From Pseudovibrio exalbescens (GTDB lineage Bacteria; Pseudomonadota; Alphaproteobacteria; Rhizobiales; Stappiaceae): DNA of 64,000 nt. The notes below the pieces were generated by a model. That model saw nothing but the letters and a program-made list of their open reading frames with translations. It had not been told where the DNA came from and made no database searches. Location of the stretch: assembly GCF_028737195.1 (NCBI RefSeq), contig NZ_JAQZAJ010000004.1, forward strand, positions 248,001 to 312,000, given 5' to 3'. Of this stretch, positions 22,663-41,979 are shown in pieces. The position numbers and the translations under genes were made by a program. Positions within the stretch are counted from its first letter, which is position 1. The number at the start of each line of letters is the position of its first letter.

Positions 22663-23598
22663 TTAACGGAACAGAGACAGGATGTTCTGAGAACCGGAGT
22701 TTGCGATGGACAGAGCCTGAATACCGAGCTGCTGCTGGGTCTGAAGAGCCTGCAGGCGGGTGGATTCAGCGTTCATGTCTGCATCAACCAGCTGGCCAAC
22801 ACCACGATCAACAGCGTCAGACAGGTTCTTCACGAATTCGGTCTGCATGTCGATACGAGACTTGGCGGAACCCAGTGCAGTCGCTGCGTCGGTCATCGTG
22901 CCAAGCTTTGTGTCTACTGCGGTGATCAAGGCTTCTAGGGCTGTCTGGTCCGCTGCTGAATCGGTGATGCCAGAGATATCGAAGTCTAGCATGTTTGCAC
23001 CAGCAATGTTTGCTGCGCCTGTGACTTCAGCCATGTCCGAGTTCAGGATACCAGTCGTCCCGCCAGTATCAATAAGTGCGATACTGGTGGTGTCGATTGT
23101 AATGTTCTGGAGAGCTGCGGCACCGGCGGCGTTACGTGTAAAGCCACCAGTTACGCTTTTAACGGCGTCAGCTGGGGTTGTCGATATGTCCTGAGACAGC
23201 CAATTTTCGCCATTGAAGGTCGCTGAGTCAGCAATTGTCTGCAGCTGTTCCTGAAGCGCTTTGATATCAGACTGGATCTTATTCTTGTCCGCGCCGTCAT
23301 CGGTGGCAGCAACAAGCTTGGCCTTAATTTCGCTTACGACGTCAACTGCGGAGTCCATGGCCGTAAAGGCAACGTCAACGGTTGCAGCACCAAGACCCAG
23401 AGCATCCTGAACAGCAGACAGAGCTTCGTTGTCCGAGTTCATGGTGGTTGCGATGGACCAGTACGCAGCGTTGTCAGAAGCGTCAGCAACGCGCATGCCG
23501 GTAGAGATGCGGTTCTGAGTGTCAGCCAGGTCGTTATTGATGTTGCGTAGGGTGGACAGTGCCACCATTGCGGAGGTGTTCGTCAGAAGAGAAGACAT
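22663..23598 (-). CDS. Flagellin, second of tandem pair
   Basis: 311-residue flagellin with the N-terminal D0/D1 domain (MSSLLTNTSAM, LADTQNRISTGMRV) and C-terminal D1/D0 domain ending GSQNILSLFR; the variable middle is short, as is usual in alphaproteobacterial flagellins. Start at 23598 is fixed by comparison with the upstream twin. The last 69 residues are identical to the twin, the middle (about 150-240) differs. It is exported by the flagellar type III system and polymerises into the filament. The leader carries a hairpin and a GTCCC/GGGAC pairing over the ribosome site, shared with the twin, which fits post-transcriptional control such as by FlbT. Confidence 0.95.
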   Translation of the reverse strand: MSSLLTNTSAMVALSTLRNINNDLADTQNRISTGMRVADASDNAAYWSIATTMNSDNEALSAVQDALGLGAATVDVAFTAMDSAVDVVSEIKAKLVAATDDGADKNKIQSDIKALQEQLQTIADSATFNGENWLSQDISTTPADAVKSVTGGFTRNAAGAAALQNITIDTTSIALIDTGGTTGILNSDMAEVTGAANIAGANMLDFDISGITDSAADQTALEALITAVDTKLGTMTDAATALGSAKSRIDMQTEFVKNLSDAVDRGVGQLVDADMNAESTRLQALQTQQQLGIQALSIANSGSQNILSLFR

Positions 23599-23677
23599 AG
23601 TATTTCGTCCCATAAAGAAGAGAAATCGGGACATTCCGGCCTAACTGCCGGTGGCAACGGGTTAAGAGCATCATGCA
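23599..23677 (-). promoter_or_regulatory. Structured leader of the second flagellin gene
   Basis: On the minus strand the order is TGCATGATGC (23668-23677), a CCGGC/GCCGG hairpin (23636-23651), GTCCC (23628-23632) and the ribosome-site GGGAC (23607-23611), 8 bases before ATG. GTCCC can pair with GGGAC and hide it. The twin leader at 25183-25257 keeps every element although the bases between them differ. Confidence 0.6.
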
Positions 23678-24179
23678 CTGCTAGGTTGTGTAGCAGCCCG
23701 TTACGCAACCAATGACGCCTACCAAACCTTGCGCGAGGCTTAACAAAACTCCTCAAAGTTGCATTTATTGAAAGATCGGCTGGCTAGGTTGTGGCCGCTT
23801 GCGCGTTCCGCCGCTGCCTAGCAATGACATCTACGATATTGGAATTAAACAGTAATATCGATAGAAGCAACCAAGGATTGCATTGATAATCAGCTTCGCA
23901 ATTTAAGAGGGAATTTTTCGATCCGTGTTGTGGATCAAGGCGTGCCCGAAGGCATAAAACGCGGCTATTTCAGGTTGTAATGCCTGAATCAGTGCGAATC
24001 TGGTTGCACGCTCAGCTACCCAAACGGGCCTATTGATGTGAGAAGCAGAAACAAAAAACGCCCTCTTGAGAGAGAGCGGCGAAAACTATGGTTGGATTTT
24101 GTGGGGCCTAACTAACACCAGTAAGTTGGTGAGCTGCCAACCGCGCTGGTGGGTGCTATGTGCCCCTTCCCGAGGCAAC
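23678..24179. other. Spacer between tandem flagellin genes
   Basis: About 500 bases with no gene. It should contain the promoter of the second flagellin gene, and it holds an extra terminator-like hairpin at 24053-24081. Confidence 0.6.
24053..24081 (-). terminator. Extra terminator-like hairpin between flagellin genes
   Basis: Stem CGCC-CTCT / AGAG-C-GGCG with one bulged base, followed on the minus strand by six Ts. It lies 100 bases beyond the true flagellin terminator with no gene between them. Confidence 0.6.
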
Positions 24180-24211
24180 AAAAAACGGCCACCTCCGTAA
24201 GGAGATGGCCG
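24180..24211 (-). terminator. Intrinsic terminator of the upstream flagellin gene
   Basis: Minus-strand stem CGGCCATCTCC / GGAGGTGGCCG with loop TTAC and a following T run. Same design as the terminator of the twin gene. Confidence 0.88.
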
Positions 24212-24249
24212 CTCGAAGTCCACCAGTTTCAGGTGTCCAGTCTTTCCGA

Positions 24250-25182
24250 TTAACGGAACAGAGACAGGATGTTCTGAGAACCGGAGTTTGCGATGGACAG
24301 AGCCTGAATGCCGAGCTGCTGCTGGGTCTGAAGAGCCTGCAGGCGGGTAGATTCAGCGTTCATGTCTGCGTCAACCAGCTGACCAACACCACGATCAACA
24401 GCGTCAGACAGGTTCTTCACGAACTCAGTTTGCATGTCGATACGGGACTTTGCTGAACCCAGAGAGGTAGCTGCATCGGTCATGTTCGACAGGACACCAT
24501 CAACACCCGTGATCAGAGCGGAGAGCTGTGCGAGATCAGCAGCAGAGTCCGTTGCGGCAGAGATGTCGAAGTCCAGCATATTTGCGCCGGTCACGATTGT
24601 ACCGTCAACGCCTGCCAGCGCGGCATTGAGAAGACCAGCAGTACCGCCAGTATCAACCAGCGCAATTGAGGTGGTGTCGATGGAGATGTTCTGGATGGCG
24701 GCATTGCCTGCTGCGTCACGGGTGAAGCCACCTACAACTGTTTTCACGGCATCAGCTGGTGTAGTCGTAACGTCCTGAGAGAGCCAGTTTTCGCCGTTAA
24801 AGCTGGCAGAGTCAGCAATGGTCTGCAGCTGGTTCTGCAGTTCGCTAAGATCGGACTGGATCTTTGTACGATCAACGCCCGGAGCTGTAGCAGCCACCAG
24901 CTTTGCCTTCATTTCGCTTACAACGTCAACTGCCTGATCCATTGCGGTGAAAGCGACGTCGACAGTAGCAGCGCCAAGACCCAAGGAGTCCTGTACTGCA
25001 GACAGTGCATCGTTGTCGGAGTTCATGGTCGTTGCGATGGACCAGTAAGCAGCGTTGTCAGAAGCGTCAGACACGCGCATGCCGGTGGAGATGCGGTTCT
25101 GAGTGTCAGCCAGGTCGTTGTTGATGTTGCGAAGGGTGGTCAGTGCCACCATTGCGGAGGTGTTCGTCAGAAGAGAAGACAT
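24250..25182 (-). CDS. Flagellin, first of tandem pair
   Basis: 310-residue flagellin, starting MSSLLTNTSAMVAL and ending GSQNILSLFR. Domain layout is the same as in the gene downstream. The two proteins differ mainly in residues 100-240, while both ends are nearly the same at the DNA level too, a pattern expected from gene conversion acting on conserved D0/D1 ends. Each gene has its own leader and terminator, so they are transcribed separately. Filament subunit, surface-exposed in the middle domain. Confidence 0.95.
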   Translation of the reverse strand: MSSLLTNTSAMVALTTLRNINNDLADTQNRISTGMRVSDASDNAAYWSIATTMNSDNDALSAVQDSLGLGAATVDVAFTAMDQAVDVVSEMKAKLVAATAPGVDRTKIQSDLSELQNQLQTIADSASFNGENWLSQDVTTTPADAVKTVVGGFTRDAAGNAAIQNISIDTTSIALVDTGGTAGLLNAALAGVDGTIVTGANMLDFDISAATDSAADLAQLSALITGVDGVLSNMTDAATSLGSAKSRIDMQTEFVKNLSDAVDRGVGQLVDADMNAESTRLQALQTQQQLGIQALSIANSGSQNILSLFR

Positions 25183-37658: not shown

Positions 37659-38978
37659 TTAGAACCGCCGGGCCAGAGACAAGGTCGCGGAGGTGCGTTC
37701 AAGATCGCCGACGAACTCGTAGGCTACTTTTGCCGCAACAAGGCCCGCACCATTGGCGAAATTGTACTTGATGCCTACATTTGCGCCTGCACCGCAATCT
37801 GAGCTGCCCGAGCCTTCATGGGTCATCTCGCAGATTGCCCGCGCGCCGACAAAGCCGTATTTGGCATTGAGCGTTTCATCCCGCTCTCCCCATGGCATGG
37901 CAAAACGCATCTCCGGCTCCAGAGCAATCCGTGTCAGTGTCACGCCGCTGACGTCTATCTTGCCCGTTGTGCTGCCATCGAGCGTATCAAAGGGAACTTT
38001 GTCCAGATCCGAGGTGCCACTCACCACAGAAAGCTGCGGAATGATGCTGAAGCCATCCCAATTGCCCCGGCCAGAGAGTGTGGCACCAGCCAGATAACGG
38101 GCGCTAACTTCCTCCGTTTCAATGGCAATGCTGTCGGCTTCCAAATCGAAGCGGTTGTAATCCAGCCCTACGGAACCAAAGGCCCCGATGGTGATTTTCT
38201 GCGTCAGCCGTGACACGCCATAAATGCCGAGGCCGCCGCCAACCCGCGTTGCGTGGCCTTTATAGGTGCCGTCGATGTGCGACTGGCTGCCATCCACGCT
38301 CATATAAAGCGCGAGGGCGGAGCGCTCGGAAAAATGCCGTTCTATCGCGGCGCGCATGTCGAAACGCCCGGTAAACGTGCCTTCCGAGTTGCCCTCGATT
38401 TCGAAGTCTCCGCTGACAATCGTGTGGTAGAGGTCGCCCGCGTCTGCCGCAAAGAAGTTGGCGAACGCGTGGGCTGCGCTGCCATTTTTACTGGCAAAGA
38501 AGTTCGTCAGGTAAAGGCCCTTGTTTGGCTGCAAGGCCCCGGACAATAGCCGTGTTGACGCCCCTTGAAGCATGGTCTTGCTTTCGCCCATCTGGTAGCG
38601 CAGGTCGGCCCCAAGCTCGTTCTCGATGAGAGTGACAGCGGATTTGCTTTCGCTGTCCAGGCTCCCTTCTTCCCCAGGCGTTGCTTTTACGGTCAGAACG
38701 AGGACGGCTTCTTTCTTGATGTTATAGTCGGAGAGTGTCCGGCCATCCTCTAGTTCTGTCCCGCCGAAGCTGAGGATTTGGTCCTCGGGGTCGATGTCCT
38801 CCATGTCGCTGATTTTCGTCTTCACGTCTTCGATGGAATCTGAGGATTCCACATCAAGCGTGATGATCTTGCCGCCGGGAAGGCTTGCGAATATCTGCAT
38901 GGCATGGGCTGACGCGATGCCACCGAAGATGAAGAACATGAACACACTCAGGCGCAGGATACTAACAGGATAACGCAT
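37659..38978 (-). CDS. Exported ubiquitin domain fused to an outer-membrane beta-barrel
   Basis: 439 residues in three parts. Residues 1-26 form a signal peptide (hydrophobic LSVFMFFIFGGIAS, site SAHA before MQIF). Residues 27-102 align with all 76 residues of eukaryotic ubiquitin without a gap; I count 44 identities, including MQIF and the block LEDGRTLSDYNI. K11, K27, K29 and K63 are kept; K6, K33 and K48 are replaced (S, M, T). The L8-I44-V70 patch is P-S-T, and the RGG tail is TPG. A helical linker (about 110-145) leads to a beta-barrel (about 150-439) ending in ARRF, as autotransporter and OmpA-like barrels do. The protein should sit in the outer membrane with the ubiquitin fold exposed or released. 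An XRE regulator is divergent across 196 bases. I know of no described protein with this layout. Confidence 0.9.
   Translation of the reverse strand: MRYPVSILRLSVFMFFIFGGIASAHAMQIFASLPGGKIITLDVESSDSIEDVKTKISDMEDIDPEDQILSFGGTELEDGRTLSDYNIKKEAVLVLTVKATPGEEGSLDSESKSAVTLIENELGADLRYQMGESKTMLQGASTRLLSGALQPNKGLYLTNFFASKNGSAAHAFANFFAADAGDLYHTIVSGDFEIEGNSEGTFTGRFDMRAAIERHFSERSALALYMSVDGSQSHIDGTYKGHATRVGGGLGIYGVSRLTQKITIGAFGSVGLDYNRFDLEADSIAIETEEVSARYLAGATLSGRGNWDGFSIIPQLSVVSGTSDLDKVPFDTLDGSTTGKIDVSGVTLTRIALEPEMRFAMPWGERDETLNAKYGFVGARAICEMTHEGSGSSDCGAGANVGIKYNFANGAGLVAAKVAYEFVGDLERTSATLSLARRF
38673..38900 (-). other. Ubiquitin-fold segment within the barrel protein
   Basis: This segment encodes residues 27-102, the complete 76-residue ubiquitin unit from Met1 to the Gly76 position. 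NEDD8 and other ubiquitin-like proteins fit less well, since LEDGRTLSDYNI and MQIF are ubiquitin-specific. Codons are ordinary for the window, so a recent eukaryotic origin is not evident from base use. Confidence 0.92.
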
Positions 38979-39174
38979 TGCTCTGCCATGATTTGGTCAA
39001 GGTTATGGTTCGAGCACTACCTGCAATTCCCTTAGAAAAGATTAGTAAAATTCACCAATATTTGCCACGCTGGTCCAGCGTTTGATGGAGGAAGCGCAGT
39101 ATGCGCCCTTCACCAAACGCCAGTTTCTGCGTCTTTCCTTCATGCTCTAGATGGATGCGGGTGGAGAAAGACGC

Positions 39175-39543
39175 ATGAGACCGTTGCCAGCGCCCACTGC
39201 GGATGCACAAGCCCGAAAGGCCCGCGAACGCCCCGTTTCTCTGGTCGGCCCCAAGGCACGCCCCCAAATGGTGGATCTGACTGACAAAAGGGAAGCGGCT
39301 CATTGGGGCGAGCGCTTGCAAGCCATTTCCCATGCGCAGGGGTGGACCAAGCAACTGTCATTGGCCAGTGCGCTGAATGTGGATGTGAGCACGGTGTCGC
39401 GCTGGCTTCGGGGCGGCAAGGTTTCTGTTGAACACTTGATCGCCCTCTCTGAACTCCTGAATGTTTCGCTGGATTGGCTCCTGCTGGGGCGCGGCACCCC
39501 AACAGGTGACCGAACTGATCAAGCCCCCTATGACCCGCAATAG
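39175..39543 (+). CDS. XRE-family helix-turn-helix regulator
   Basis: 122 residues with a basic, Pro-rich N-terminus and one XRE/Cro domain (LSLASALNVDVSTVSRWLRG, then LIALSELLNVSLDWLLLG). The ATG at 39175 has GGAGAAAG 6 bases upstream; an earlier ATG at 39151 has none. It is divergent from the ubiquitin-barrel gene and is the best candidate for its regulator; that link is inferred from position only. Confidence 0.82.
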   Translation: MRPLPAPTADAQARKARERPVSLVGPKARPQMVDLTDKREAAHWGERLQAISHAQGWTKQLSLASALNVDVSTVSRWLRGGKVSVEHLIALSELLNVSLDWLLLGRGTPTGDRTDQAPYDPQ

Positions 39544-39645
39544 CTGCATGTCACATGACGAAAGCACGCCTGTTTTCTCTCATGGCTCCTTTCGCGTTCC
39601 GCATCCGGTTACCAAGCTGTTTCAGTAGGCTCTAAATTTTGATGG

Positions 39646-40890
39646 GTGCTTCACGCAAGGCTTTTGCATGAAACGCAACCGGTTGCAGCTTCAAAAATAC
39701 CACCTGAACTGGTGTCATGGCAAAAAACCACGATAAGGACACCTGGCTTGCCATCATCCCCTCCTGCCCTTTTCGAGTTTGAGGTCTATCAGGCGTTTCA
39801 GAGCCTGCCTGAAGCTTTGCAGCCCCTGCTCGACCTGCTGGACCCGCTCTCCAAGACCGTGGCGAGCTTCAGCGGCATCCTCTCTGACACCAAGGGCATA
39901 ACCACACAGCTTCAACAGATTGCGGCTGAAGTCACCACCATCGAAGGGCTGCTAACGGCCGTGGATGAGGTGCCCATTGTGGGCGAAGCCACTGCGGCGC
40001 TTCAGGCAGTGATGCCGGAGATTACCGAGGCTCTCGACGGCCTTACTGGCACGATGAACGAAACCATTGAACCGATCGTGACAACGCTTGGTGCGGTGCT
40101 CAGTGAGCTGTCTGCGGCGCTCGACATCCTGAAAGAGTTCGTGGGTGATGCCGCTGACTTTTCCGGTGATTTCGCCAAGGTTTATGGATTGGTGGGGCTC
40201 GCGGAGACGGTGCTGCACGATGTTGCCGCCGTGATGGGGCCAGATGCTTTGCGCGCCCCCGCTCGTGACCTGGAAAGCGCCCTTGGCACGGCCCTGAAGG
40301 TGACCAACACGGACTTGGTGCCACTGGCACTGGCCCTTGGCCGTTTTTCTCAAGCCTTGAAACCGTTGAACAAAAGCCTGAGCGCTGATCTGAAGAGCGT
40401 TCAGCCTGCCCTCGACAGCGTCAAAGGGGATCTGGACAGCGTGCTGAGCAAGCTGGAGGACGTGACCTCGCCGCTGCGCACCTTGGAAAACGCCATTCCC
40501 GGCGGGTCGGCGCTGACGAACTGGATTGGCGACGGCATCAGCTGGTTGACCGACAAGATTGGTGCGTTGATCCCTTCCTCGCTGAAGAAAGAGGTGTTTG
40601 GGCCCATTGAGAACGATGTTCTGAACTGGCTGAACCTGAAGCCGCTGGAAGACGCGCTGACCGCCATCGGTGTATCTGACCTTCAAGCGCGCCAGAGGGA
40701 CGTTACCCCCGATCAGGCAAACCAGGCCAAATCTCAATGGCAGGGTATTGAAGGCGCGTTTCATCAGGCGAACCTCAGCCCGGCCACGCAATCAATCGAA
40801 CAGGTGGCGGCAGGCCTGCTGAAGTCGGTGATCTCCGGCCCTGTGCAGGCCGGGCCGCAACAGCGGCACCAGAAAGGGGCCGGCTCATGA
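39646..40890 (+). CDS. Unknown helical protein, first gene of a three-gene operon
   Basis: Up to 414 residues of mostly amphipathic helix, rich in Leu, Ala and Asp with heptad-like spacing (LPEALQPLLDLLDPLSKTVA and similar segments throughout). No family is recognised. No signal peptide or membrane helix is plain. The start is uncertain: GTG at 39646, GTG at 39712 or TTG at 39751 (AGGA upstream) are all in frame, and clear coding character begins near FEFEVYQAF. The stop overlaps the next start by 4 bases. It might form coiled bundles, or coat a surface as phasins do; that is speculation. Confidence 0.65.
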   Translation: MLHARLLHETQPVAASKIPPELVSWQKTTIRTPGLPSSPPALFEFEVYQAFQSLPEALQPLLDLLDPLSKTVASFSGILSDTKGITTQLQQIAAEVTTIEGLLTAVDEVPIVGEATAALQAVMPEITEALDGLTGTMNETIEPIVTTLGAVLSELSAALDILKEFVGDAADFSGDFAKVYGLVGLAETVLHDVAAVMGPDALRAPARDLESALGTALKVTNTDLVPLALALGRFSQALKPLNKSLSADLKSVQPALDSVKGDLDSVLSKLEDVTSPLRTLENAIPGGSALTNWIGDGISWLTDKIGALIPSSLKKEVFGPIENDVLNWLNLKPLEDALTAIGVSDLQARQRDVTPDQANQAKSQWQGIEGAFHQANLSPATQSIEQVAAGLLKSVISGPVQAGPQQRHQKGAGS

Positions 40891-41375
40891 GCGCGCCTCG
40901 ACCAGCCCTCCGCCAAGGTGTGGCCCGCACAGCGCCCTTGGTTCTTCGCGGTTATTACAATGGGTTGATCCGCTTGGCGTTTCTTTCTGGCGCCTATCAC
41001 ATTTCTGCGCCGTTGACCGTGTTGGAGCTACGGACGGAGCGCGACGTGCTTTTGGCCCACCCCGCACTGAAGGGCACCAATGGCTGCACCCCGACCCTTG
41101 AAACTCTGCAGGCCCATGGCCAACAGGCCCACGGGCTGGCCCATGCAATGGCGCGGGGGCTGGGCCTAAAGGCAGCTGGCCACCTTGGCCTGAGCCTGTT
41201 GGCGAGAACGCCGTTTGCAGCCGCGGTGCCCGTGACGCAGGAGGCCTTGAAGCTGGGGCTTGAGCGTCAGATCACACTCCTTTTTGCTGCCCGCACACTT
41301 GCGCGCGGCCTCCTGCCACCTGTCAGGGGTGGCTTTTCACAACCTCAAAACAAACCAACAAAACCAGAGGTCTGA
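40887..41375 (+). CDS. Unknown protein, second gene of a three-gene operon
   Basis: 162 residues, starting at an ATG that overlaps the previous stop (ATGA). It has a basic N-terminus, a central YYNGLIRLAFLSGAYHIS segment and a C-terminal part with alternating Ala, Leu and Gly. No recognised domain. Coupled on both sides: the next gene begins one base after its stop, so the three products are probably made in fixed ratio. Confidence 0.65.
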   Translation: MSAPRPALRQGVARTAPLVLRGYYNGLIRLAFLSGAYHISAPLTVLELRTERDVLLAHPALKGTNGCTPTLETLQAHGQQAHGLAHAMARGLGLKAAGHLGLSLLARTPFAAAVPVTQEALKLGLERQITLLFAARTLARGLLPPVRGGFSQPQNKPTKPEV

Positions 41376-41376
41376 C

Positions 41377-41979
41377 ATGCACGCACAACCCCAGAACCAC
41401 ACGGCTCCGCACAGCCAGAACCACACCCCCGCCGCGGCGCACCCCATGCCGAAGCCACAGCCGCCGCAACAGCCGAAAGCAGCAGGGCCTGCTGCGCCAG
41501 ATGCGACCGAATGGCGGTCCATCAAGAACGATCTCGATCTGGCCAAAGGCATTCTGGATGAGGCCGCGACCGTTGTGCCCAATCTGGTGCCCGCTGGTGA
41601 AGCCCGTGAGATCACCATGGCGGTGTTGTTTGCGCTGCGCGACATTTGCACCAGCGTGGATCAGGAGCTTGCAAAAACGCTCATGGGCCGGACAAAGCAG
41701 AGCGACGAAATCGACACCCTCATCTCCGGTGCCCTCGCCAACGTGAAATCCAGCAATATGATCCTGAACTTTGCTCTTCCGCTTCTGGGCAAGCTGGCGG
41801 GGCTGTTGATTGGCAAGATGAATGTCTCACCCTACCTGCAGGCGGTGCTGGTTGGCGTCTTGGAAGGGGTTGCTCAGCTCTTGCAAGAGCCTGCCTTGCA
41901 GAAGGACCTGAGCAACTTTCCCGTGCTTGGCGAGATTGAAAGCTTCCTTGGGGGCGGCACCCAGCACAAGGCAGCGTGA
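41377..41979 (+). CDS. Unknown protein, third gene of a three-gene operon
   Basis: 200 residues. The first 45 are Pro/Ala/Gln/His-rich and probably unfolded (for example PKPQPPQQPKAAGPAAP). The rest is helical with a hydrophobic hairpin-like stretch (NMILNFALPLLGKLAGLLIG, then YLQAVLVGVLEGVAQLL). AGAGG precedes the ATG. No family recognised. Length and the hydrophobic end suggest an association with a membrane or with the two other operon products. Confidence 0.65.
   Translation: MHAQPQNHTAPHSQNHTPAAAHPMPKPQPPQQPKAAGPAAPDATEWRSIKNDLDLAKGILDEAATVVPNLVPAGEAREITMAVLFALRDICTSVDQELAKTLMGRTKQSDEIDTLISGALANVKSSNMILNFALPLLGKLAGLLIGKMNVSPYLQAVLVGVLEGVAQLLQEPALQKDLSNFPVLGEIESFLGGGTQHKAA

What the first reader, a model, noticed from the sequence alone, without database searches (positions are those of the whole stretch)
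37659..38978. A ubiquitin displayed by a bacterial outer-membrane barrel
The protein has a signal peptide, an ungapped 76-residue ubiquitin (44 identities by hand count), a helical linker and a beta-barrel ending in Phe. The signal-peptidase site falls exactly before ubiquitin Met1, so the mature protein starts like ubiquitin. The known bacterial precedent, the secreted BfUbb of Bacteroides fragilis, has no barrel. Loss of RGG, K48 and the I44 patch (P8, S44, T70) while the fold core, K11, K27, K29 and K63 stay suggests a mimic selected for something other than conjugation: an adhesin, a decoy for host ubiquitin readers, or a proteolytically released effector.
Basis: partly seen in the sequence, partly recalled or inferred. 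Interest (0 to 1): 0.97.

Follow-up and report, generated by a model that had tools for sequence, protein, structure and literature searches.

The report
Ubiquitin displayed on bacterial cell surface
A marine bacterium carries a gene for a ubiquitin head, a helical stalk and an outer-membrane barrel, and related genomes show exported, tail-less ubiquitin in many distantly related bacteria, which suggests that this hallmark eukaryotic protein is put to use on the outside of bacterial cells.

Summary
Window 37659-38978 (-) encodes 439 aa: signal peptide, ubiquitin domain (44/76 identical to human; Pfam 62 bits, cut-off 25.4), a 42-residue helix and a predicted barrel of about 12 strands; Foldseek matches include the EspP autotransporter. 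It is not a chimera: 5 of 16 Pseudovibrio genomes have such a gene (one copy broken).

The larger result lies outside the window. A scan of 84,980 species genomes kept 80 of 156 relatives, from 13 named bacterial phyla and Methanothrix. Nearly all have a signal-like run ending at ubiquitin Met1; 5 of 88 rows have Gly-Gly. Up to half carry a recognised anchor (autotransporter barrel, SLH, CTERM signals, T9SS tail). Profile searches that did not select for signal peptides agree (17 of 22 further domains exported, 0 of 22 with Gly-Gly).

Best reading: a minimal type-V-like autotransporter with ubiquitin as passenger, one of a sporadic class of exported, non-conjugatable ubiquitins. The window copy is divergent and lost the I44 patch; most relatives keep it. 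Display is predicted, not shown; function (eukaryote-facing mimic, adhesin, BfUbb-like antagonist) is inference. The papers found describe only BfUbb.

The parts
37659..38978 (-). whole gene, 439 aa, ubiquitin-barrel protein
38901..38978 (-). signal peptide, residues 1-26, ending A-H-A
   Evidence: read from the sequence; helix 5-19 in the model; same layout in relatives
38673..38900 (-). ubiquitin domain, residues 27-102
   Evidence: PF00240 62 bits; 44/76 identical to human; beta-grasp in the model
38541..38666 (-). long helix, residues 105-146 (stalk or in-pore helix)
   Evidence: model
38430..38540 (-). low-confidence linker, residues 147-183
   Evidence: pLDDT under 50 at 144-181
37662..38429 (-). 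predicted outer-membrane barrel, residues 184-439, about 12 strands, C-terminal Phe
   Evidence: model; Foldseek EspP barrel; homology to the L016 and L006 barrels

Best explanation
The gene encodes a minimal classical-type (type Va-like) autotransporter whose passenger is a single ubiquitin domain. Proposed course: Sec export; signal peptidase cuts at AHA|M so the mature protein begins with ubiquitin Met1; the C-terminal barrel is inserted by BAM; the helix-linker threads through the barrel; the ubiquitin folds outside and stays tethered. It cannot be a modifier, because Gly75-Gly76 is absent and the chain runs on into the barrel. It belongs to a sporadic class of bacterial exported, non-conjugatable ubiquitins in which ubiquitin is the N-terminal head of proteins that often carry lineage-specific surface anchors. 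The head most likely works as a binding module; in the class as a whole, conservation of the ubiquitin surface after loss of the tail points to partners that recognise ubiquitin, most simply eukaryotic proteins met outside the cell (protists or animal hosts such as sponges). Shown here: sequence layout, predicted fold, recurrence, tail loss, several kinds of anchor, purifying selection in several pairs. Inferred: cleavage, surface display, function, direction of gene transfer. The window copy has lost the I44 patch and may have a changed or relaxed partner.
For: Ubiquitin by profile. Model: beta-grasp, helix, about 12 strands; the same plan with 12 long strands for P. denitrificans L059. EspP barrel among Foldseek hits. 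PF03797 in relatives with ubiquitin at the head: L016 39 bits, L059 84.4, L022 41, L070 57.8, L043 145.1, L026 53.6, L083 103.1, L062 81.6, L109 61.9. Of 84 members scanned 25 hit PF03797, 7 IPTL-CTERM, 5 SLH, 3 T9SS tail, 3 OMP_b-brl. Of 45 rows found only by the pattern inside ubiquitin, 44 have a signal-like run and a small -1 residue. Gly-Gly in 5 of 88 rows and, by my reading of the table, 0 of 22 further domains. dN/dS 0.042 for ubiquitin and 0.097 for the rest between two Pseudovibrio species.
Against: No experiment. No direct PF03797 hit for the window barrel nor for P. flavus L017. Weak superposition on EspP (rmsd 7.1). The stretch between helix and barrel is low confidence, so whether the helix lies in the pore is unknown. 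At least 41 of 84 members hit none of the five anchor families counted. The I44 patch is gone in this copy. Holders include genomes from groundwater and other samples without an evident host. In 3 of 15 close pairs ubiquitin is less constrained than the rest. Many loci are MAG contigs. The 71-column tree is unresolved.
Confidence: 0.7

Rival explanations
1. The ubiquitin is a surface-attached antibacterial weapon, a tethered version of BfUbb, acting on competing strains by contact or after release.
For: BfUbb, also exported and without the terminal glycines, is needed for inhibition of other B. fragilis strains (PMC5705921, passages read). Patchy presence in the genus (5 of 16) and gene order without the gene in one relative are usual for competition genes.
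Against: No shared immunity-like neighbour was found: among 514 neighbouring ORFs of the loci examined the widest family spans 5 loci. Fusion to a barrel or to SLH domains does not suit a diffusible toxin. BfUbb ends in Cys (PMC3352274, passages); this protein does not.
Confidence: 0.15
2. Ubiquitin serves only as a hardy, fast-folding N-terminal cap or spacer; its surface has no partner.
For: In the window copy 14 of the 15 core positions listed keep the human residue while the I44 patch and many surface positions changed.
Against: Across 83 distinct exported ubiquitins surface positions are conserved too: mean fraction of the human residue 0.92 for lysines, 0.80 for the I44 patch. Of 15 pairs whose tails align at 65% nucleotide identity or more, ubiquitin has the lower dN/dS in 12. 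Positions 1-5 and 20-27 were partly selected by the search patterns.
Confidence: 0.2
3. Recent eukaryotic contamination or an assembly chimera.
For: Ubiquitin is a eukaryotic protein; L080 in the same scan is a tetra-ubiquitin without signal peptide and looks like eukaryotic DNA.
Against: 406 kb contig; four other genomes of the genus; ubiquitin GC3 0.684 against 0.57-0.73 in eight neighbouring ORFs; signal peptide and barrel in frame; the flanking gene order is kept without the gene in G011.
Confidence: 0.02

Closest known systems
BfUbb of Bacteroides fragilis (PMC3352274, PMC5705921)
   Same: Exported bacterial ubiquitin with a signal peptide, lacking the terminal glycines.
   Different: No anchor is mentioned for BfUbb in the passages read and it ends in Cys; here the domain is fused to a helix and barrel and is further from human ubiquitin (44 against 48 identities of 76).
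Classical monomeric autotransporters (type Va; e.g. EspP; PF03797)
   Same: Signal peptide, N-terminal passenger, helix, C-terminal barrel of about 12 strands ending in an aromatic residue (by model).
   Different: Passenger is a single ubiquitin domain; no direct PF03797 match of the window barrel; the helix is separated from the first strand by a low-confidence stretch.
Annotated 'ubiquitin family protein' WP_013483628.1, Ruminococcus albus plasmid pRUMAL01
   Same: Signal-peptide-like N-terminus followed by ubiquitin without Gly-Gly.
   Different: No anchor family among its Pfam hits.
Eukaryotic ubiquitin (PF00240)
   Same: Homologous beta-grasp domain; K11, K27, K29, K63 kept.
   Different: Behind a signal peptide, no Gly-Gly, no I44 patch, no K48.

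Membership tests
Ubiquitin family domain (PF00240) | profile match above the curated cut-off | tested here: met
   62 bits, cut-off 25.4
Ubiquitin family domain (PF00240) | beta-grasp fold | tested here: met
   model; Foldseek rank 1 is a ubiquitin, rmsd 0.7 over 73 columns
Ubiquitin as a conjugated modifier | C-terminal Gly-Gly, free after processing | tested here: not met
   residues 75-76 read P-G and the chain runs on into the linker
Classical autotransporter (type Va) | Sec signal peptide | tested here: inconclusive
   hydrophobic run ending AHA by eye, and in relatives; no dedicated predictor on hand
Classical autotransporter (type Va) | C-terminal 12-strand barrel preceded by a helix | tested here: met
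   by prediction only: strands 184-437, twelve by my count with two broken, helix 105-146; 12 long strands in L059
Classical autotransporter (type Va) | sequence match to PF03797 (a diagnostic, not a definition) | tested here: inconclusive
   no hit for the window protein; hit for the homologous L016 and for L059; linked by iterated HMM
Classical autotransporter (type Va) | passenger reaches the cell surface | not testable with these tools
   needs protease shaving or labelling
BfUbb-type secreted antibacterial ubiquitin | free, unanchored ubiquitin | tested here: not met
   fused to helix and predicted barrel
BfUbb-type secreted antibacterial ubiquitin | inhibits strains of the same species | not testable with these tools
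   needs an inhibition assay

The most novel reading that the evidence does not exclude
Bacteria of at least 13 phyla, and Methanothrix archaea, have taken up eukaryotic ubiquitin, dropped its conjugation tail, placed it directly behind a signal peptide and fastened it to whatever surface anchor their lineage uses, as a kept mimic that engages ubiquitin-binding or ubiquitin-cutting proteins of the protists and animals they meet; Pseudovibrio, often found with sponges, does this with an autotransporter.
Probability: 0.45. Interest if true: 0.95.

Novelty: new variant of a known kind. Interest (0 to 1): 0.87.

Why it matters
The 2017 BfUbb paper calls B. [quoted passage not shown] The data here suggest that exported, tail-less ubiquitin is a recurrent bacterial feature found with several anchors. 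If display is confirmed, it gives a new passenger class for autotransporters and a testable case of molecular mimicry outside the host cell. A conserved surface with the tail gone would also separate the recognition role of ubiquitin from its conjugation role.

Tried and rejected
Contamination or chimera: rejected. Phage origin: no tblastn match of P0001 in the phage collection; plasmids gave two partial matches, both to ubiquitin domains near a hydrophobic N-terminus. One origin within Pseudovibrio: could not be shown; the 71-column tree of 86 rows gives the 5 Pseudovibrio rows 4 changes, 0% of 200 bootstrap trees with one, 43 of 83 inner branches open, and the window row is a long branch. 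A shared partner gene: 514 neighbour ORFs clustered, nothing general. Direct PF03797 assignment of the window barrel: no. Search-pattern bias as the source of the signal peptides: tested, not supported; positions 1-5 and 20-27 stay biased in the conservation table. The iterated HMM includes its own members, so its E-values are not independent. One search keeps 80 of 156 confirmed relatives. Gene order without the ubiquitin gene rests on one genome, G011; in G013 the TM2-like genes have other neighbours and do not bear on it.

Row choices: the 88 rows include two species seen twice (L002/L017, L004/L059) and L080. One search aligned the window and 83 of the 88 rows (L002, L015, L059, L061, L080 left out). 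One search dropped L080, L015 and identical repeats, leaving 83. One search left out L002, L004, L015 and L061. One search printed 42 pairs; 3 had no measurable dS for ubiquitin and one pair appears twice.

Full report
Observation. The ORF 37659-38978 (-) reads 439 aa without interruption. Residues 27-102 match human ubiquitin without a gap, 44 of 76 identical. Pfam PF00240 scores 62 bits, E 4.6e-17. The PDB search returned 337 sequences at E<=0.01; the 60 shown are by name ubiquitins or their fusions and variants, apart from two affilin variants and one 79-residue chain named Uba1. This is far beyond chance. The 26 residues before Met27 carry a hydrophobic stretch and end A-H-A, a typical signal-peptidase I site (established knowledge; no predictor was on hand).

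Fold. AlphaFold2 on 19 aligned proteins gave mean pLDDT 77.5, pTM 0.63: beta-grasp at 27-97, helix 105-146, low confidence at 144-181 and strands from 184 to 437, twelve by my count with numbers 7 and 8 in short pieces. Foldseek against the PDB listed ubiquitins and, at rank 23, the EspP barrel of 8bnz (E 6.9e-8, 282 columns, 11% identity, rmsd 7.1, TM 0.38 and 0.53). A second model, P. denitrificans L059 on 23 proteins, has the same plan with twelve long strands at 235-484 (mean pLDDT 74.6, pTM 0.61). The window barrel has no PF03797 hit. Its phmmer matches among the fetched proteins are L016 (E 1.4e-22), whose barrel hits PF03797 (39 bits), the ubiquitin-free barrel of a large repeat-containing protein in G012 (L006, E 5e-20), P. 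flavus (L002/L017, E 5.8e-10) and the first piece of the broken G005 copy (E 3.4e-6). So the same kind of barrel carries another passenger in the genus.

Genus. Five of 16 genomes of the genus have a PF00240 match, the same five as with P0001; of 61 genomes in 31 genera, own included, only this genus rings. Contig lengths identify G012 with L017, Pseudovibrio flavus, and G006 with L059, P. denitrificans, hence the genus. P. flavus has signal peptide, ubiquitin (79% to human over the aligned 73 residues) and barrel; G006 and G009 have 90% and, in G006/L059, a PF03797 barrel; G005 has 93% but is split over two frames and looks broken. Neighbours differ (named by eye): an XRE-like regulator and zinc-ribbon TM2-like genes in the window, other genes in G012, an SDR-like gene in G006/G009, an integrase-like gene in G005. 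In G011 the XRE-like and TM2-like genes lie about 400 bp apart with no ubiquitin gene between them. This rests on one genome; in G013 the TM2-like genes have other neighbours. The gene was thus gained on the window lineage or lost in G011. GC3 of the ubiquitin part, 0.684, is like that of eight neighbouring ORFs, 0.57-0.73.

Beyond the genus. One scan of genome contigs (84,980 species) with a four-protein alignment found 156 relatives, of which the best 80 are kept. The tree labels name 13 bacterial phyla (Pseudomonadota, Verrucomicrobiota, Bacillota, Bacteroidota, Actinomycetota, Chlorobiota, Planctomycetota, Cyanobacteriota, Spirochaetota, Nitrospirota, Acidobacteriota, Synergistota, Lindowiibacteriota), an unplaced KSB1 genome and two Methanothrix-type archaeal MAGs (Nitrospinota L080 not counted). 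Many are MAGs, but named strains of Cohnella, Saccharibacillus, Paracidovorax, Pseudomonas, Neptunomonas, Rhodopirellula and Leeia are among them. L080, four ubiquitins in tandem with RGG and no signal peptide, is probably eukaryotic contamination.

Tail and signal. Of 88 ubiquitin rows 84 have small residues at -3 and -1 before Met1, 3 have RGG at 74-76 (two Clostridia MAG loci with the same ubiquitin, and L080) and 5 have Gly-Gly at 75-76. The scan used one pattern that selects A-x-A-MQIF and one inside ubiquitin. Of 82 rows in L016-L095, 29 match only the first, 8 both and 45 only the second; 44 of these 45 have a signal-like run with a small -1 residue, the exception being L080.

Second sample. 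PF00240 profile searches that know nothing of signal peptides gave: order of the window 1 of 297 (itself), phylum 2 of 398 (itself and one weak 26.6-bit match), family of a Cohnella 8 of 197, phylum of L027 13 of 337, family of Paracidovorax citrulli 5 of 200. The last three are centred on known holders, which are included. They and one search gave 22 ubiquitin domains not among the 80 kept loci (they may be among the 76 not shown). By my reading of the table, 17 of 22 have a signal-like run with a small residue before the domain and 0 of 22 have Gly-Gly. The five others: L096 (weak, no signal), L104 (inside a protein with LRR and SLH), and L121, L122 and L125, where no signal was seen upstream in three frames though L121 has an IPTL-CTERM tail (21.1 bits, cut-off 20.5) and L125 a MYXO-CTERM-like tail. 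Outside the genus the trait is rare, a few per cent at best in the groups sampled.

Anchors. Among 84 members scanned, 84 hit PF00240, 25 PF03797, 7 IPTL-CTERM, 5 SLH, 3 T9SS tail, 3 OMP_b-brl, and several hit Ig-like, fn3 and cadherin-like repeats (25 of 67 families shown). So at least 41 of 84 hit none of these five anchor families; some of those are cut by contig ends. Single cases: L059, L016, L022, L070 autotransporter; L041 IPTL-CTERM; L045 three SLH; L036 T9SS tail; but L017, L018 and L031 none, although these three match the iterated barrel HMM. L043, L026, L083, L062 autotransporter; L056 and L065 SLH; L030 T9SS tail; L058 (Methanothrix) SdrD-like repeats; L014 and L066 no anchor. L099, L103, L104 SLH; L109 autotransporter; L115 VPDSG-CTERM; L117 PEP-CTERM; L098, L121, L122, L125 none in Pfam. 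L085, L098, L116 and L122 none in NCBIfam.

Selection. Between the two close Pseudovibrio species dN/dS is 0.042 for ubiquitin and 0.097 for the rest. Of 42 pairs printed (one of them twice), 39 have measurable dS for ubiquitin; 36 of these give 0.021-0.243 and three give 0.393, 0.464 (tandem paralogues) and 0.558 (dS only 0.021). dS is above 1 in many, and tails that align at about 50% are probably unrelated. Of 15 pairs whose tails align at 65% nucleotide identity or more, ubiquitin is lower than the rest in 12 and higher in 3. Across 83 distinct sequences the mean fraction of the human residue is 0.97 at core positions, 0.92 at lysines, 0.80 in the I44 patch and 0.23 in the tail; positions 1-5 and 20-27 are biased by the patterns. 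The ubiquitin is kept, surface included, while the tail is lost. That bacteria keep this surface without the tail suggests that something reads it; this is the argument for partners outside the cell, and it is inference. Whether these genomes hold ubiquitin-conjugating enzymes was not searched.

The window copy. It is a long branch (0.91 changes per column), keeps 14 of the 15 listed core residues but none of L8, I44, H68, V70, nor K48. Either its partner changed or the surface is relaxed; this was not decided.

Known work. BfUbb is exported, lacks the glycines, inhibited ubiquitination in vitro and bound E1, and is needed for inhibition of other B. fragilis strains (PMC3352274 and PMC5705921, passages read). 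A Pseudovibrio comparative genomics paper lists autotransporters and links the genus with sponges; the search counted the word ubiquitin 0 times in it (PMC4811931, listing and passages). A review of extracellular ubiquitin names BfUbb in the passages read (PMC10892293). Passages of PMC4378268, PMC3482391 and PMC1949818 did not describe exported ubiquitin. Nine searches of the open-licence library showed, among the rows listed, no paper on surface-anchored bacterial ubiquitin; four of them listed only 20 of 58, 279, 34 and 218 papers, and subscription papers are mostly not held, so this is weak evidence of novelty.

Verdict. As a kind it is a new variant: known parts (exported ubiquitin, autotransporter) in a new union, beside other anchors elsewhere. 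Surface display and function await experiment.

Noticed in passing
L032:426-1433 and loci L019, L043, L055, L079: Five exported-ubiquitin loci labelled as three phyla share an adjacent gene family, a possible two-gene cassette; L032 and L055 are short MAG contigs, so their labels may be wrong.
   Followed up: partly
L052, L078, L111: Two exported ubiquitin genes in tandem with different ubiquitin variants.
   Followed up: no
L006 (G012:C3): Large repeat-containing protein (1717 aa open frame; repeats by eye) with the same barrel type as the window protein but no ubiquitin in the part read: passenger exchange on one barrel.
   Followed up: partly
window 39151-41979: XRE-like regulator and three unusual genes kept in the same order in G011; function not recognised.
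   Followed up: no
window 22663-25182: Two tandem flagellin-like genes (named by eye).
   Followed up: no
L034, L058: Methanothrix-type archaeal MAG contigs with exported ubiquitin heads, one on a 1491-aa SdrD-like repeat protein.
   Followed up: partly
L104: Ubiquitin domain inside, not at the head of, a leucine-rich-repeat and SLH protein.
   Followed up: no
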